Positions 52,122 through 58,672 of a stretch of DNA of 64,000 nt are shown in pieces (the first letter of the stretch is position 1; every line of letters starts with the position of its first letter). The stretch covers positions 7,095,501 to 7,159,500 of the forward strand of contig NZ_JAZHRV010000001.1 in the NCBI RefSeq assembly GCF_036924595.1. Direction: 5' to 3'. Source of the DNA: Bradyrhizobium algeriense. GTDB lineage: Bacteria; Pseudomonadota; Alphaproteobacteria; Rhizobiales; Xanthobacteraceae. The notes under the pieces were generated by a model. The model saw only the letters and a program-made list of their open reading frames with translations. It did no database searches and was not told the DNA's origin. A program made the translations under genes and the position numbers.

Positions 52122-53108
52122 ATGGGCGTAATGCTCGATACGATCGGCCAGGTGATTGCGGGCTACCTGCAGAAGGAAGTCCCGGGCTATGAGCCGTTCA
52201 CACCCAGCGACCCCGAGCATCTGCGCGGCGTCATCGAGCCCGGCGACGTGCTGCTGGTCGAAGGCAACAACCGCATCTCCGGCATCATCAAATACCTGAC
52301 ACAGTCCACCTGGTCGCACGGTGCGCTTTACGTCGGCCCGGTCGACGGCGCGTTCGAACCCGACGGCGAGCCGCACGTCCTGATCGAGGCCAATATCGGC
52401 GAAGGCGTGACCTCGGCGCCGCTGTCGAAATATTATCCCTATCACACCCGGCTCTGCCGCCCGATCGGCCTGTCCTATGAGGACCGCACCACGGTGTGCC
52501 GCTACGCCATCAACCGGATCGGCTTCGGCTACGACACCAAGAATATCGTCGACCTGATGCGTTATTTGATCCCGCTGCCGGTGCCGCAGCGCTGGCGCCG
52601 CCGCATGATCGCGTTCGGCTCCGGCGATCCCACCAAAATCATCTGCTCGGCGCTGATCGCGCAGGCGTTCGACGCCGTGCGCTACCCGATCCTGCCCAAG
52701 ATCACGCGTGCCGCCTCAAGAAAGGCCCGGCGCGAGATCCTGCATATCCGCGATTCCTCGCTCTACATGCCGCGCGATTTCGACATCTCGCCCTATTTCG
52801 AAATCGTCAAACCCACCATCGTGCACGGCTTCGACTACACGGCCCTGCATTGGGCCGACAAGCAGAAGCCGCTCCAGGAGGTAGCGGGCGAATTCGGTGT
52901 GTTTCCAGAGGTCAAGTCGCCGCCGCTTGTTCCTGAAGAGATTGACCAAGAAGCGCCGCTTCCGGCTGAAGAAGTGACGGTTGAAGAAGTGGCCTGCGAA
53001 ACGATGATGATCGAACGCGTCACCGTCTCGGAACATTATCTCGCTGTCGAATACGTCCCGGTCCGCGCGCCGGAGCGGCGCATGAAGCCGCGCGAGATCG
53101 TGGCGTAG
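52122..53108 (+). CDS. YiiX/YebB-like permuted NlpC/P60 cysteine hydrolase
   Basis: A 328-residue protein. The core is at residues 36-190: GDVLLVEGNNRISGIIKYLT, His66 in TWSHGALYVG, and Cys175 in KIICSALIAQAF. The order His before Cys is that of circularly permuted papain-like amidases (YiiX/YebB, LRAT-like). Such enzymes cleave amide or ester bonds in peptides or lipids. No signal peptide is seen, so it is cytoplasmic or membrane-associated. The last 100 residues are acidic and lack similarity to known domains. Start ATG 52122 follows GGGGGAG. It is convergent with the TonB receptor. Confidence 0.82.
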   Translation: MGVMLDTIGQVIAGYLQKEVPGYEPFTPSDPEHLRGVIEPGDVLLVEGNNRISGIIKYLTQSTWSHGALYVGPVDGAFEPDGEPHVLIEANIGEGVTSAPLSKYYPYHTRLCRPIGLSYEDRTTVCRYAINRIGFGYDTKNIVDLMRYLIPLPVPQRWRRRMIAFGSGDPTKIICSALIAQAFDAVRYPILPKITRAASRKARREILHIRDSSLYMPRDFDISPYFEIVKPTIVHGFDYTALHWADKQKPLQEVAGEFGVFPEVKSPPLVPEEIDQEAPLPAEEVTVEEVACETMMIERVTVSEHYLAVEYVPVRAPERRMKPREIVA

Positions 53109-53156: not shown

Positions 53157-55367
53157 CTAAAACCTCCCCGCCAGCGTCAGCCGCACCGCCAGCGGCTCGG
53201 CCGGATGCACATGCCGGTCCGCGACGCCGCCGATCGGTTCGCCCGGCAACCGCGACAGATAGTAATACTCGATCTGGTTGGTCCGCGCGTTGAAGAGATT
53301 GAGCACGTCGAGCTGCAGTTTTAAACCATTGTCGAAGCGGTAGCCGGCTCGTGCGTTGAAGATCAGCGACGCCAGCGAACGGACGCTATCGTCCTCAATC
53401 AGCGGACGCGGGCCGAAATAGCGCGCCTTCAATGCACCAAACCAACCAGTCTCGCTGCCCAAGGTGATTGCGCCGCTCGCGATCCACGCCGGCGCGCCCG
53501 GGATGAAATTGCCGGCGGCATCGAAATCGGTGAAGCGCGCGCGGGTATAGGCAACGTCCAGATCGAATGATAGCCACGGCTTCGGCTTGTATTGGTTCAC
53601 CCACTCCACGCCAACCCGGCGGCTCGGCCGGCTGGCCTCAGTGGTGCCGGCGTCGCCCACGAACAGCAGTTCGGAGTCGAAATCGAGTACAAAGACAGCG
53701 ACCGAGCTTGTGAGTCCCTCGATCGCTTTCGTGCGGAAGCCAAGCTCGGCGCCCTTCGATCGCACCAATAGCGGCACGCGATCCTGCGGCGTCACCTTGT
53801 CGATCGGATCGACCGTGATCGTCGCGCCGCGGATGTCATTGCTGTGCAGGCCGTAGCCGGCATTGCCGTAGAACTCAGTCTTGTACCAGGGGCCAAGCAC
53901 GATGCCGGCTTTCGGGCTCGTTATCGTCGCCTGGGCATTGCCTGAATTTTCCGGCGTGTCGCTGAGGACGCGGCCGGCGAAAACGTCCTCGCGGATGCCA
54001 ACAGTGGTGCGCAGCCAGTCGTTCCAGCGCGTCGTTGTGTCGGCCCAGATGCCGACATTGCCTTCCTGCACGCGGTCCTCGCGCACGGTCGAAAGCACCG
54101 CACGCTGCTCCGTCTTGAACAGACCGACATGGATGTCGTCGTAGCGGCTTTGCATTCCGACGCGGGTTTGCGTCTCGAAGCCGCCAAACCGCCAATCGAA
54201 GGCATGCCGTGCGTCGAAGCCACCAAGGGTGCGGCGATCGAGCTGGTTGAACTGGTCGCCATTGACGGGATTATCGAGGAAATAAGTGAAGTTGTTGAAG
54301 AGCTGCAGGTCGGAGCGCACGACGTAGGCGTTGACCTTGCTCTGGCCGTACTCGCTCGATTGCGCCCAATTGCCGGACAGGCTGAAGCGGCTGGCCGTCC
54401 CGCCATCGGTGGGATCAAGCGAGCCGAAGCGGCCGATGATGCCCTGATCGATGGCGCGCTGCGCCACCTGGTCGGTCGAATTCCAGCCGTTGGAATAAGC
54501 CATCGCGGTCAGCGTGAGCCCATCGGTCGCGGTGCCCTGGCTGTAGCGCAGCACGCCGTTCATTTTCCGCACATTGTCCGGAACGTCCCACGGCCCATCG
54601 TATTTGATGCTCTCGACCGCCGCGAGCATCGTGCCCGCGCCGACCGCGGTCGATCCCGCCGCCACGCCGCGCCGGTAATCGAAGCTGCCAAATGTGACCT
54701 CGGCTAGATTTTTCGGCAGCTTGTTAAGGTAGTCGATCGCGACGGACCCGGCGGAGCTGAAATCGCCCACATCGGCGTAGTACGGACCCTTGCGGACATT
54801 CACCGATTGAATCAGCTCAGGGATCAGGAAGTTGATATCGGCGTAGCCCTGCCCGTGGCCATGCGTTGGCACGTTGACAGGCATGCCGTCGACCTTGATG
54901 GAGAGATCTGTCCCGTGGTCAAGGTTGAAGCCGCGTAGGAAATACTGATTGGCTTTACCTTCTCCGGAATGCTGGGTGACGATCAGACCGGGCACGACTT
55001 CCAGCGCCTCGCCGACACGCACGAATGGCACTGCGTTCACCTGTTCGCCGGTAAAGCTTATCGCGCTGGCGGCGGTGGGCTGCAGGGCGGCGGCGCCATC
55101 GGATGAAGTGCCGGGCGTGACGCCGCCTGCGCCCGCGGTGACCGGCTGGTTCGAGCGAACGGCGGTTCTGCTCCGCGCACCACGATTTTGCGGCTGTTTT
55201 GGCCGAGCGATCCGCTTGGGCGGCGTTGCGTTGGGAGCCGTGATGGTCACCGGTGGAAGCTGGTCAGGCTGAGACGCCGTCCACTCCTGCCCCTCGGCGG
55301 GGAGCATCAGAACGGCAGAAGAAGCCGTAGCGGAAAATATCCGCAACAAGACCCTGCGCACCGCCAT
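53157..55367 (-). CDS. TonB-dependent outer-membrane receptor, NikR-controlled
   Basis: A 736-residue receptor. After a signal peptide (MAVRRVLLRIFSATASSA) comes a proline/basic linker of about 70 residues, then the plug (FTGEQVNAVPFVRVGEALEVVPGLIV, shortened; contains FLRGFNLDHGTDLSIKVDGMP). The barrel ends with a final aromatic LAGRF. The plug loop PTHGHGQGYADINF adds histidines next to the plug that could bind metal. A perfect NikR operator lies between this gene and nikR, so the likely cargo is nickel chelate. Its own ATG 55367 is close to this site. Function inferred from regulation and family. Confidence 0.85.
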   Translation of the reverse strand: MAVRRVLLRIFSATASSAVLMLPAEGQEWTASQPDQLPPVTITAPNATPPKRIARPKQPQNRGARSRTAVRSNQPVTAGAGGVTPGTSSDGAAALQPTAASAISFTGEQVNAVPFVRVGEALEVVPGLIVTQHSGEGKANQYFLRGFNLDHGTDLSIKVDGMPVNVPTHGHGQGYADINFLIPELIQSVNVRKGPYYADVGDFSSAGSVAIDYLNKLPKNLAEVTFGSFDYRRGVAAGSTAVGAGTMLAAVESIKYDGPWDVPDNVRKMNGVLRYSQGTATDGLTLTAMAYSNGWNSTDQVAQRAIDQGIIGRFGSLDPTDGGTASRFSLSGNWAQSSEYGQSKVNAYVVRSDLQLFNNFTYFLDNPVNGDQFNQLDRRTLGGFDARHAFDWRFGGFETQTRVGMQSRYDDIHVGLFKTEQRAVLSTVREDRVQEGNVGIWADTTTRWNDWLRTTVGIREDVFAGRVLSDTPENSGNAQATITSPKAGIVLGPWYKTEFYGNAGYGLHSNDIRGATITVDPIDKVTPQDRVPLLVRSKGAELGFRTKAIEGLTSSVAVFVLDFDSELLFVGDAGTTEASRPSRRVGVEWVNQYKPKPWLSFDLDVAYTRARFTDFDAAGNFIPGAPAWIASGAITLGSETGWFGALKARYFGPRPLIEDDSVRSLASLIFNARAGYRFDNGLKLQLDVLNLFNARTNQIEYYYLSRLPGEPIGGVADRHVHPAEPLAVRLTLAGRF

Positions 55368-55441
55368 GCCCCCGCATGTTTACTGCTACAAGTCTGAGAG
55401 CAACTGCACCATACCCAACCCGACATTCGCTAGCAAGGACA

Positions 55442-55469
55442 GTATGACGATACAATAGAAATATCATAC
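55442..55469. promoter_or_regulatory. NikR operator between the TonB receptor gene and nikR
   Basis: GTATGA (55442-55447) and TCATAC (55464-55469) are separated by exactly 16 bases, identical to the E. coli NikR consensus GTATGA-N16-TCATAC. It lies 23 bases upstream of the nikR ATG and 75 bases upstream of the receptor start on the other strand. Confidence 0.88.
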
Positions 55470-55491
55470 CGGGACCAACACGGAAATCAGG

Positions 55492-55932
55492 ATGCAACGG
55501 ATCACCATCACCATTGAAGACGATCTGCTCGCCGAGATCGATGCGGCGGCGGAAGCCCGCGGCTATCAAAACCGCTCCGAGATCATCCGCGATCTCGCCC
55601 GCGCCGGACTGCAGCAAAGCGCCGAGGACGCAACTCCTTCAGGCCAATGCGTCGCTGCCCTAGTCTATGTCTACGATCACGCCGCGCGCGACCTGTCGAA
55701 ACGGCTGGTGCAGAATTTCCACGGCCGCCACGATCTGTCGCTGGCGACGCTCCATGTCCATCTCGACGACGACTCCTGCATGGAGGTGACGGCGCTGAAG
55801 GGAGGGAGCGGCGAGGTCCGGCACTTTGCCGACCACATCATCGCCGAGCGCGGCGTGCGCTACGGCCGCGTGGTGATGATCCCGACGGCATCCGACAAGA
55901 AACCGAAGGCGCGCAAGCACGGCCACGACTAG
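55492..55932 (+). CDS. nikR: nickel-responsive regulator NikR
   Basis: A 146-residue ribbon-helix-helix/ACT-domain repressor. The DNA-binding beta strand is MQRITITIEDDLL, with helix RSEIIRDLARAGL. All four nickel ligands of E. coli NikR are conserved: His77, His88, His90 and Cys96 (NFHGRHDLSLATLHVH and DDDSCMEV). On nickel excess it binds GTATGA-N16-TCATAC sites; the perfect copy upstream means it controls the divergent TonB receptor and its own gene. No nikABCDE genes are in this window. Confidence 0.95.
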   Translation: MQRITITIEDDLLAEIDAAAEARGYQNRSEIIRDLARAGLQQSAEDATPSGQCVAALVYVYDHAARDLSKRLVQNFHGRHDLSLATLHVHLDDDSCMEVTALKGGSGEVRHFADHIIAERGVRYGRVVMIPTASDKKPKARKHGHD

Positions 55933-55959: not shown

Positions 55960-56235
55960 TTACCTGTCTGAACGGCCGATCACGGCCATCAGCTCCGCGA
56001 TCTTTTCCCGCTGATCGGCCTTGTTGCCGCTGGTGATCGCGTGCTCGACGCAATGCGACACATGATCCCGCAAGACCTCTTCCTCGACACGCCGCAGCGC
56101 GGCCCGCACGGCTGATATCTGCGTGACGATGTCAATGCAGTAGCGATCCTCCTCGACCATCTTGGACAGGCCGCGGACCTGGCCCTCGATCCGGCTGAGG
56201 CGCTTTTGGCAGGAAGCCTTGATGTCTTTTCGCAT
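55960..56235 (-). CDS. csoR: CsoR-family metal-sensing repressor
   Basis: A 91-residue DUF156 all-helical repressor. The copper-type ligand triad is present with family spacing: Cys33, His58 and Cys62 (C-x24-H-x3-C, as in RYCIDIV and DHVSHCVEH). The helices are MRKDIKASCQKRLSRIEGQV and VEEEVLRDHV. It is divergent from the copper ATPase gene, with a TATACCCC-TAC-GGGGTATA palindrome between them, the CsoR operator type. The metal is inferred as copper(I) from the ligand set and the neighbour; the nickel/cobalt RcnR set (His in place of the last Cys) does not fit. Confidence 0.88.
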   Translation of the reverse strand: MRKDIKASCQKRLSRIEGQVRGLSKMVEEDRYCIDIVTQISAVRAALRRVEEEVLRDHVSHCVEHAITSGNKADQREKIAELMAVIGRSDR

Positions 56236-56281: not shown

Positions 56282-58672
56282 ATGATGAACAAGAATGAAA
56301 ACGCCGAGCGAAACGGCGCGTCAAAGAGCGCCTGCTGCGACCACGCCAGTCACAGCCAGCACGATCATCACACCCACACCGCTGCAACCCTCCGCGATCC
56401 CGTCTGCGGCATGAGCGTCGACCCCGCGACCAGCAAGCACCGCTTCGACTACCGCGGCGAGACCTTCCATTTCTGCTCGGCCGGCTGCCGTACCAAATTC
56501 GCCGCCGATCCCGTCTCCTATCTGGAAAAGGACAGCAGGCCGAAGGCCGCGGTGCCGGAAGGCGCCATCTACACCTGCCCGATGCATCCCGAGATCCGCC
56601 AGGTCGGCCCCGGAAGCTGCCCGATCTGCGGCATGGCGCTGGAGCCGGAGGTCGCGAGCCTCGATGCGCCGCCCAATCCGGAACTCGCCGACATGACGCG
56701 CCGCTTCTGGATCGGCCTCGTGCTCGCGCTGCCGGCCGTCGTCCTGGAAATGGGCGGGCACCTCGTCGGCGGCCATGGCTTCCTCGATCCGACGCTGTCG
56801 AACTGGATCCAGTTAGCGTTTGCCACGCCGGTGGTGCTCTGGGCCGGCTGGCCGTTCTTCGTGCGCGGCTGGCAATCGCTCGTCACGCGCCATCTCAACA
56901 TGTTCACGCTGATCGCTGTCGGCACCGGCGTGGCCTATGTCTACAGCGTCATCGGCACCGTCGCGCCCGGAATCTTCCCGTCGACCTTCCGCGGCCATGG
57001 CGGCGCGGCCGCCGTCTATTTCGAATCCGCGGCCGTCATCACCGTCCTCGTGCTGCTCGGCCAGGTGCTCGAACTTCGCGCGCGAGAGGCGACATCAGGC
57101 GCGATCAAGGCGCTGCTGCAGCTCGCGCCGAAAACCGCGCGCCGGATCGGCGATGACGGCGCCGATCACGAGGTGGAAATCGATACGCTTGCAGTTGGCG
57201 ATCATCTGCGCGTGCGCCCGGGCGAGAAGGTGCCAGTCGACGGCGTCATCCTCGAAGGCCGCTCCTCGCTCGACGAATCGCTGGTGACCGGCGAATCCAT
57301 GCCCGTCACCAAGGAGCCGGGCGGCAAGGTGATCGCAGGTACGCTCAACCAGTCCGGCGGCTTCGTCATGCGCGCCGAAAAAGTCGGGCGCGACACGCTG
57401 CTTTCCCAGATCGTCAAGATGGTGGCGGATGCGCAGCGTTCCCGCGCGCCGATCCAGCGGCTGGCCGATCAGGTTTCCGGCTGGTTCGTGCCTATCGTCA
57501 TCCTCGTCGCGCTGCTCGCGTTCGGCGCCTGGGCCTGGTTCGGGCCGGAGCCACGCATGGCGTTCGGCCTGGTCGCCGCCGTCAGCGTGCTCATCATCGC
57601 CTGTCCCTGCGCACTCGGCTTGGCTACGCCGATGTCGATCATGGTCGGCGTCGGGCACGGCGCACAGGCCGGCGTGCTGATCAGGAACGCCGAAGCGCTC
57701 GAGCGCATGGAGAAGGTCGACACGCTGGTGGTCGACAAGACGGGAACGCTGACCGAGGGCAAGCCGAAGGTGGTCGCCATCGTACCGGCAGACGGATTTG
57801 AGGAAGCCGGCATTCTGCGGCTGGCCGCGACCGTCGAGCGCGCCAGCGAACATCCGCTGGCTGACGCCATCGTACGGACGGCCAAAGAGCGCAATCTCGA
57901 TTTAGGCAAGGTGGAAGAGTTCCACTCGCCGACCGGCAAGGGCGCCACCGGCAAGGTCGACGGCAAGGCGATCGTGCTTGGCAATGCGAACTTCCTGCAG
58001 TCGCTTGGCATCGACGCACATTCATTGAACGATAAGGGCGAACGTCTGCGCGGCGACGGCGCGACCGTGATCAACATGGCGGTCGACGGCAAACTTGCGG
58101 GATTGTTTGCCATCGCCGACCCCGTGAAAGCGTCGACACCGGACGCGCTGAAGGCGCTGGCGGCTGATGGCATCAAGGTCATCATGCTCACGGGCGACAA
58201 CAGGACCACGGCGAATGCCGTCGCGCGGAGCCTCGGCATCGCCGATGTCGAGGCGGAGGTGCTGCCCGACCAGAAGAGCGCTGTCGTGGCCAAGCTCCAG
58301 AAGGCCGGAAAGGTCGTCGCGATGGCCGGCGACGGCGTCAACGATGCGCCGGCGCTCGCCGCCGCCGAAGTCGGCATCGCCATGGGCACCGGCACCGATG
58401 TTGCGATGGAGAGCGCTGGCATCACGCTGCTGAAGGGCGATCTGGTCGGCATCGTCCGCGCCCGGCGGCTCTCTCAGGCGACGATGAGTAATATCCGGCA
58501 GAATCTGTTCTTCGCCTTCATCTACAACGCCGCCGGCATCCCGATCGCCGCGGGCATTCTTTATCCCGCGTTCGGCCTGCTGCTGTCGCCGATCATCGCC
58601 GCTGCGGCGATGGCGCTGTCTTCGGTGAGCGTCGTCGGCAATGCGCTACGGCTAAGGATGACGCGGCTGTAA
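56282..58672 (+). CDS. copA: copper-type P1B ATPase with YHS domain
   Basis: A 796-residue metal-transporting ATPase. A His-rich N-terminus (residues 20-34) is followed by a YHS domain ([20 protein letters not shown], about 38-82) and a heavy-metal-binding domain ([20 protein letters not shown], about 98-121), in place of the usual HMA domains. The metal motif CPC is at 441-443, the phosphorylated aspartate at 485 in DKTGTL, and the TGE loop at 337-339. It exports monovalent copper (or silver) to the periplasm. Regulated with csoR by the palindrome upstream. Confidence 0.92.

What the first reader, a model, noticed from the sequence alone, without database searches (positions are those of the whole stretch)
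55368..55932. Perfect NikR operator between a TonB-dependent receptor and nikR
GTATGA (55442-55447) and TCATAC (55464-55469) are spaced by exactly 16 bases, identical to the E. coli NikR consensus. All four NikR nickel ligands (His77, His88, His90, Cys96) are conserved in the adjacent nikR. The divergent TonB receptor at 53157-55367 is therefore very probably nickel-repressed and a candidate outer-membrane nickel-chelate importer. Its plug loop carries the histidine pair motif THGHGQGYAD. No nikABCDE genes are in the window, so receptor and inner-membrane importer would be unlinked.
Basis: partly seen in the sequence, partly recalled or inferred. Interest (0 to 1): 0.78.

Follow-up and report, generated by a model that had tools for sequence, protein, structure and literature searches.

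The report
Nickel-switch site controlling a metal receptor
A soil bacterium of the Bradyrhizobium kind carries a textbook DNA switch for its nickel sensor in front of a gene for an outer-membrane nutrient importer, and the switch is kept in many relatives, so the importer very probably brings in nickel; this kind of system was already predicted, and this is a well-supported further case.

Summary
Confirmed: GTATGA-N16-TCATAC lies at 55442-55469 between nikR and a divergent TonB receptor. The 8.1 Mb genome has two exact copies (about 0.1 expected); the other precedes a second TonB receptor beside the urease cluster. Of 77 testable related receptor loci, 59 keep the site (54 exactly), including 19 of 32 with no nikR in the locus, so the receptor itself is a target. 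In 296 family genomes site and NikR co-occur (95 both, 5 site only, 58 NikR only, 138 neither). Of 29 other sites in the genus, 15 precede a NicO-type nickel permease, 11 of these followed by a homologue of this receptor. Best explanation: nickel-loaded NikR represses the receptor, and probably nikR, by covering overlapping promoters; the receptor imports nickel, probably as a chelate. Binding, repression and transport are untested. The histidine pair is equally conserved where NikR is absent, so it does not support NikR control. Searches found no NiFe hydrogenase and no NikA over cut-off in this genome; urease is the likely consumer. Bll6948 of Bradyrhizobium is a published predicted nickel receptor: a new member of a known kind.

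The parts
55442..55469 (.). NikR operator GTATGA-N16-TCATAC, 22 bases before the nikR start codon and 74 bases before the receptor start codon
   Evidence: Exact match; conserved in related loci; co-occurs with NikR
55492..55932 (+). nikR, nickel-responsive repressor, 146 aa; ribbon-helix-helix plus NikR_C; ligands His77, His88, His90, Cys96
53157..55367 (-). TonB-dependent receptor, 736 aa, probable outer-membrane importer of a nickel complex
55450..55455 (-). Receptor -35-like hexamer TTGTAT inside the operator spacer
   Evidence: Sequence and alignment; inference
55427..55432 (-). Receptor -10-like hexamer TAGCGA (TAGCGT in many relatives), preceded by TGC, 17 bases downstream of the -35-like hexamer
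   Evidence: a conserved block after the site in 60 aligned sequences; inference
55451..55456 (+). TACAAT, possible nikR -10 on the opposite strand, overlapping the receptor -35-like hexamer; no good -35 for it was seen
   Evidence: Sequence; its complement TTGTA is in 28 of 40 sites with nikR in the locus and 0 of 19 others; inference, confounded by clade

Best explanation
The 28-base site is a real NikR operator shared by two divergent genes. When nickel in the cell is sufficient, Ni-NikR binds it, covers the receptor's -35 region (and probably the nikR promoter) and blocks transcription. When nickel is scarce, NikR leaves and the receptor is made, so that a nickel complex is pulled across the outer membrane by TonB energy. 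Inner-membrane entry would use a separate permease, probably the NiCoT-like one at the urease locus, and the nickel would mainly serve urease. Shown by computation: the site, its conservation, its link with NikR, and its recurrence before nickel permeases and receptors. Inferred: binding, repression, nickel as cargo, the chelator, the partner permease and the promoter elements.
For: Two exact sites in the genome, about 0.1 expected, both in front of TonB receptors. Of 77 testable related loci 59 keep the site with at most 1 mismatch, 19 of them among 32 loci without nikR in the fetched locus; control stretches downstream, available for 77 of 80 loci, never had fewer than 3 mismatches. Site against NikR in 296 family genomes: 95 both, 5 site only, 58 NikR only, 138 neither; own genus 23, 0, 0, 4; reversed-pattern control in 2 of 296. 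Of the 32 loci without nikR, 31 lie in genomes that could be searched: 17 of 20 with NikR keep the exact site against 1 of 11 without (Fisher p 6e-5). Of 29 other own-genus sites, 15 precede a homologue of a NicO permease (11 of them followed by a receptor homologue), 10 a receptor homologue directly, 1 the second receptor type, 3 nothing recognised (NicO assignment of the representative). Among 30 site loci from other genera the site also precedes a NiCoT-like permease (2) and a DUF4198-CbiM pair (1). Named relatives: pHCG3 with hyp genes, nikR and receptor; B. guangxiense plasmid with exact box, HoxN/HupN permease, receptor and hydrogenase genes.
Against: No binding, expression or uptake data. 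58 of 153 NikR-bearing family genomes have no exact site; they may use divergent sites. Among receptor loci 18 of 77 lack the site at 1 mismatch or better, 5 of them with nikR in the locus. One genome without a NikR match keeps the exact site (L046), three with NikR lack it before the receptor (L063, L094, L095), and 5 of 296 have the site without NikR. 3 of 29 genus sites and 2 of 30 sites from other genera have no recognised target. The 49% identical receptor on Cupriavidus pHG1 lies by HoxN but its stretch has no site better than 3 mismatches, and the pCMU01 receptor stretch none better than 4. Relatives of the receptor persist in 11 genomes in which no NikR was found, so the receptor is not used only under NikR control. 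The inner-membrane partner is not identified. Related genomes are not independent, so the p-values overstate the evidence.
Confidence: 0.85

Rival explanations
1. The site serves only nikR autoregulation; the receptor is a bystander that happens to be divergent.
For: The site ends only 22 bases before the nikR start codon, and 40 of 45 receptor loci with nikR have it. In 8 of 30 site loci from other genera the site is near a nikR homologue with no receptor homologue found in the 3 kb read.
Against: 19 of 32 receptor loci without nikR keep the exact site upstream of the receptor, and sites recur directly before receptors and NicO-type permeases in other genomes of the genus.
Confidence: 0.04
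2. NikR does repress the receptor, but its main cargo is not a nickel complex (for example cobalt, zinc, or a ligand whose uptake must stop when nickel is high).
For: The receptor persists in genomes without NikR. A 57% identical receptor on pCMU01 lies about 3.4 kb from cobalamin-synthesis genes. The nearest solved structures are PqqU, a PQQ importer, and YncD, at 18-19% identity. A marine survey groups Bll6948 with receptors labelled nickel and cobalt (PMC3400609, passage).
Against: Repeated coupling to NicO/HoxN permeases, nikR and hydrogenase genes and, for the second receptor, urease.
Confidence: 0.09
3. The site is a chance palindrome.
For: A 2-mismatch scan of the genome is mostly noise (51 against 29 reversed).
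Against: Two exact copies against about 0.1 expected, both before TonB receptors; conservation and co-occurrence.
Confidence: 0.01

Closest known systems
Bll6948 of Bradyrhizobium and pHCG3_081 of Oligotropha/Afipia carboxidovorans, predicted nickel TonB receptors (Rodionov et al. 2006 as cited in PMC7142613 for Bll6948; table in PMC3400609 for both; passages)
   Same: Same genus or family. On pHCG3 a 49% identical receptor is divergent from nikR with a 1-mismatch site between them, the same layout as here. That this gene is pHCG3_081 is inferred, not checked by locus tag; the Bll6948 sequence itself was not compared.
   Different: The pHCG3 copy sits with hydrogenase maturation genes; the window copy sits beside csoR/copA-like genes in a genome where no NiFe hydrogenase was found.
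FrpB4 and FecA3 of Helicobacter pylori (known here through citations in PMC11247825 and PMC5385501, passages; original papers not read)
   Same: TonB receptors repressed by nickel through NikR; H. pylori also has operators shared by nikR and a divergent transport operon (exbB-exbD-tonB, PMC5385501 passage).
   Different: H. pylori NikR recognises an A/T-rich pseudo-palindrome, not the strict GTATGA-N16-TCATAC; kinship of the receptors was not tested.
E. coli NikR-nikABCDE
   Same: Operator (as recalled from the literature) and repressor with aligned ligands.
   Different: The target here is an outer-membrane receptor; no NikA over cut-off in the genome.

Membership tests
NikR repressor | Ribbon-helix-helix plus NikR_C domain, equivalog score | tested here: met
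   PF01402 and PF08753 over cut-off; TIGR02793 193 bits against 175
NikR repressor | Nickel ligands His, His, His, Cys | tested here: met
   His77, His88, His90, Cys96 align with the E. coli ligands (E. coli numbers recalled)
NikR repressor | Nickel-dependent binding to the operator | not testable with these tools
   Needs a binding assay
TonB-dependent transporter | N-terminal plug and C-terminal beta-barrel | tested here: met
   Plug and barrel over Pfam cut-offs; AlphaFold model, mean pLDDT 80.7, matches PqqU, FecA, FhuA and others; barrel strands were not counted
TonB-dependent transporter | TonB box and signal peptide | not tested
   LPPVTITAP near residue 38 looks like a TonB box by recall; most of residues 1-95 of the model are below pLDDT 50
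NikR-regulated nickel TonB receptor | NikR operator in the receptor promoter, kept in related loci | tested here: met
   59 of 77 loci, tracking NikR
NikR-regulated nickel TonB receptor | Genomic coupling of the receptor family with nickel transport or nickel enzymes | tested here: met
   11 of 29 genus sites have permease then receptor; pHCG3, pHG1, p53363
NikR-regulated nickel TonB receptor | Nickel transport | not testable with these tools
   Needs uptake assays
PqqU receptor | NCBIfam NF041535 cut-off | tested here: not met
   49 bits against 1200; fold match only at 18-19% identity

The most novel reading that the evidence does not exclude
In a Bradyrhizobium sub-clade the receptor is coupled to an approx. 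880-residue fused MFS/spermidine-synthase protein: downstream and co-directional in 11 of 80 receptor loci (10 of these 11 with the exact NikR box, L054 with a 2-mismatch remnant), and in one further genome divergent from a receptor homologue with the box between them. This could be a nickel-repressed aminopropyltransferase that makes and exports a nickel chelator which the receptor re-imports, that is, a self-made nickelophore pathway. A search of the window's genome found no homologue (the tool warns that an empty answer alone proves little), so there the chelator would be borrowed from plants or other microbes.
Probability: 0.08. Interest if true: 0.75.

Novelty: new member of a known kind. 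Interest (0 to 1): 0.3.

Why it matters
How Gram-negative soil and nodule bacteria bring scarce nickel across the outer membrane is known mainly from Helicobacter; in Bradyrhizobium, as far as the passages I saw tell, it rests on prediction. This locus offers a clean test: one perfect operator, two divergent genes, a second operator at the urease locus, and relatives in which NikR and the site are missing together. If true, urease and, in relatives, hydrogenase and hence hydrogen recycling in legume nodules could depend on a nickel-chelate receptor.

Tried and rejected
Treating 1- and 2-mismatch sites in the genome as further regulon members: rejected, since the reversed pattern gives more than half as many.

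Using the histidine pair THGHGQGYAD as evidence for NikR control: rejected, it is invariant in all 27 aligned receptors, 10 of them from genomes in which no NikR was found.

Filing the receptor as PqqU or BtuB: rejected on scores. NikABCDE as inner-membrane partner: no NikA over cut-off; the 30 sub-threshold relatives are taken as the general peptide-binding family. The strong NicO hit at 6064273 is a His-rich protein that I take for an efflux pump only because the neighbouring ORF resembles a CzcA-type pump by eye.

The receptor-like fragment at 5706315-5706479 was searched for the liv/NiCoT synteny of relatives; no clear synteny (only 28-31% identity ABC hits).

Papers not held and so not read: Rodionov et al. 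2006, Schauer et al. 2007 and 2008, Noinaj et al. 2010; they are cited through other papers or recalled. Papers seen only as passages: PMC2667541, PMC7689651, PMC9733117, PMC10457146, PMC11247825, PMC5385501, PMC3400609, PMC7142613. All others were seen only in search listings.

Full report
What is there. The window lies in an 8.10 Mb single-contig genome whose nearest named relatives by receptor are Bradyrhizobium (up to 97% identical). At 55442-55469 stands GTATGACGATACAATAGAAATATCATAC, a perfect GTATGA-N16-TCATAC. 22 bases separate it from the nikR start codon and 74 from the receptor start codon. nikR passes the NCBIfam equivalog model and aligns with E. coli NikR so that His77, His88, His90 and Cys96 fall on the nickel ligands (E. 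coli numbering recalled). The divergent gene is a plug-and-barrel TonB receptor, whose model (mean pLDDT 80.7) is nearest to PqqU/YncD at 18-19% identity.

More than chance. From base composition about 0.1 exact sites are expected in the genome; there are two. The other, at 841536-841563, lies in front of a second, 28% identical TonB receptor whose stop overlaps the start of a DUF4198 gene. Upstream of it are a NiCoT-like permease with the motif RHATDADHV (weak TIGR00802 match far below cut-off; no Pfam match; signature compared with the table in PMC7689651, passage) and a urease cluster: urease alpha and beta subunits, UreE, UreF, a CobW/HypB/UreG-domain protein, UreD and a urea transporter. 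Sites with 1-2 mismatches are mostly noise.

Conservation. The 80 best receptor relatives of 557 in the named genome collection were fetched; 77 have enough upstream sequence. 54 carry the exact site and 5 one mismatch; a control stretch downstream, available for 77 of the 80, never came below 3 mismatches. nikR is within the fetched locus in 45 of the 77; 40 of these have the site. Of the 32 without, 19 have the exact site, so the site belongs to the receptor and not only to nikR. For 31 of those 32 the whole genome could be searched for NikR: 20 have NikR, and 17 of these keep the exact site (exceptions L063, L094, L095); 11 gave no NikR, and 10 of these lack the site (exception L046). L054, without NikR, shows a 2-mismatch remnant. 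Site and regulator thus seem to be lost together.

Co-occurrence at family level. Among 296 genomes of the family, 100 have an exact site and 153 have NikR: 95 both, 5 site only, 58 NikR only, 138 neither (Fisher p 5e-30, not corrected for kinship). In the own genus 23 have both and 4 neither. The reversed pattern is found in 2 of 296.

What the sites stand before. All 29 other own-genus sites counted (22 genomes) were read. 15 precede a homologue of the permease in L157, itself a NicO-family protein (346 bits); the other 14 were assigned by tblastn, 13 at 80-90% and one (L167) at 52% identity. In 11 of the 15 a homologue of the window's receptor follows in the same direction. 10 sites precede a receptor homologue directly, 1 the second receptor type with its DUF4198 gene, and 3 nothing recognised. 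Of 30 site loci that the tool cut out from other genera, 17 have a receptor homologue, 2 a NiCoT-like permease (weak NCBIfam matches below cut-off), 8 a 38-42% nikR homologue alone, 1 a DUF4198-CbiM pair, 2 nothing recognised. Named plasmids: Afipia carboxidovorans pHCG3 has hypF, hypD, hypE and hypB, a permease, nikR and a divergent 49% identical receptor with a 1-mismatch site between; B. guangxiense p53363 has an exact box, a HoxN/HupN permease, a receptor and hydrogenase genes; Cupriavidus necator pHG1 has hydrogenase, HoxN and a receptor within 10 kb but no box in the stretch; Methylorubrum pCMU01 has a receptor about 3.4 kb from cobalamin genes and no box in the stretch.

How it probably works. 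In 60 aligned sequences (59 loci plus the window) the half-sites are nearly invariant, and a block after the site is also conserved. It reads, towards the receptor, as a -35-like TTGTAT or TTGACA inside the spacer, about 17 bases, then TGC-TAGCGT in many (in the window TTGTAT, 17 bases, TAGCGA). NikR on its operator would cover the -35. On the other strand the same bases read TACAAT, a fair -10 for nikR, though I see no good -35 for it; TTGTA occurs in 28 of 40 sites with nikR in the locus and 0 of 19 others. This suggests overlapping divergent promoters, but the loci are related, so it is only a suggestion.

The cell. The search found no NiFe hydrogenase large subunit in the genome (it rang in 5 of 14 control genomes) and no NikA over cut-off, and one strong NicO protein that looks like an efflux pump. 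Urease is therefore the likely nickel consumer, and the weak NiCoT-like permeases at 840515 and 2150114 are the candidate inner-membrane importers (the second scores 28.8 bits against the NicO cut-off 27.7 as a whole protein). A 55-residue match 76% identical to the receptor at 5706315-5706479 may be what is left of a second copy.

What is known. Published tables list Bll6948 of Bradyrhizobium as a predicted nickel receptor, citing Rodionov et al. 2006 (PMC7142613, passage), and group it with RPA_4757 and pHCG3_081 as nickel/cobalt receptors (PMC3400609, passage). PMC11247825 (passage) lists it among TBDTs known to act on nickel, although PMC7142613 marks it as predicted. nikR near copA and csoR in B. 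diazoefficiens is noted in PMC10457146 (passage). The finding is thus a well-supported new member of a known, largely predicted kind. In nine paper searches (most list at most 20 papers) I recognised, from titles and abstract openings, no experimental test of NikR control of a TonB receptor in Bradyrhizobium; subscription papers are mostly not in that library.

Most novel reading. In 11 of 80 receptor loci a fused MFS/spermidine-synthase protein (NF037959, 73 bits against cut-off 40; one representative tested) follows the receptor, and in one genome it is divergent from a receptor homologue across the NikR box. That association, seen in two arrangements, could mark a nickel-chelator pathway, but nothing about the enzyme's product is known and no homologue was found in the window's genome.

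Noticed in passing
55960-56235 (-) and 56282-58672 (+): CsoR/RicR-like repressor (below the RicR cut-off) and a divergent copper-type P-ATPase with YHS and HMBD domains lie directly after nikR; a similar neighbourhood is described in B. diazoefficiens (PMC10457146, passage).
   Followed up: partly
L062:6297-8999 and ten further loci; L168:3025-5658: Fused MFS/spermidine-synthase protein next to the receptor in a Bradyrhizobium sub-clade, downstream in 11 of 80 loci and divergent in one further genome; in nine loci also a homologue of a 2OG-FeII_Oxy_5 protein (one representative tested).
   Followed up: partly
L003:9537-12658: Second exact NikR box in the genome, before another TonB receptor and a DUF4198 gene, beside the urease cluster.
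   Followed up: yes
L198:7322-7471 (genome 5706315-5706479): Short stretch 76-84% identical to the receptor's C-terminal part, probably a remnant of a lost second copy.
   Followed up: partly
L046: Exact NikR box before the receptor in a genome with no NikR match; draft assembly gap or recent loss.
   Followed up: no
52122-53108 (+): Peptidase_C92 (YaeF/YiiX-like) protein just downstream of the receptor, in convergent orientation.
   Followed up: no
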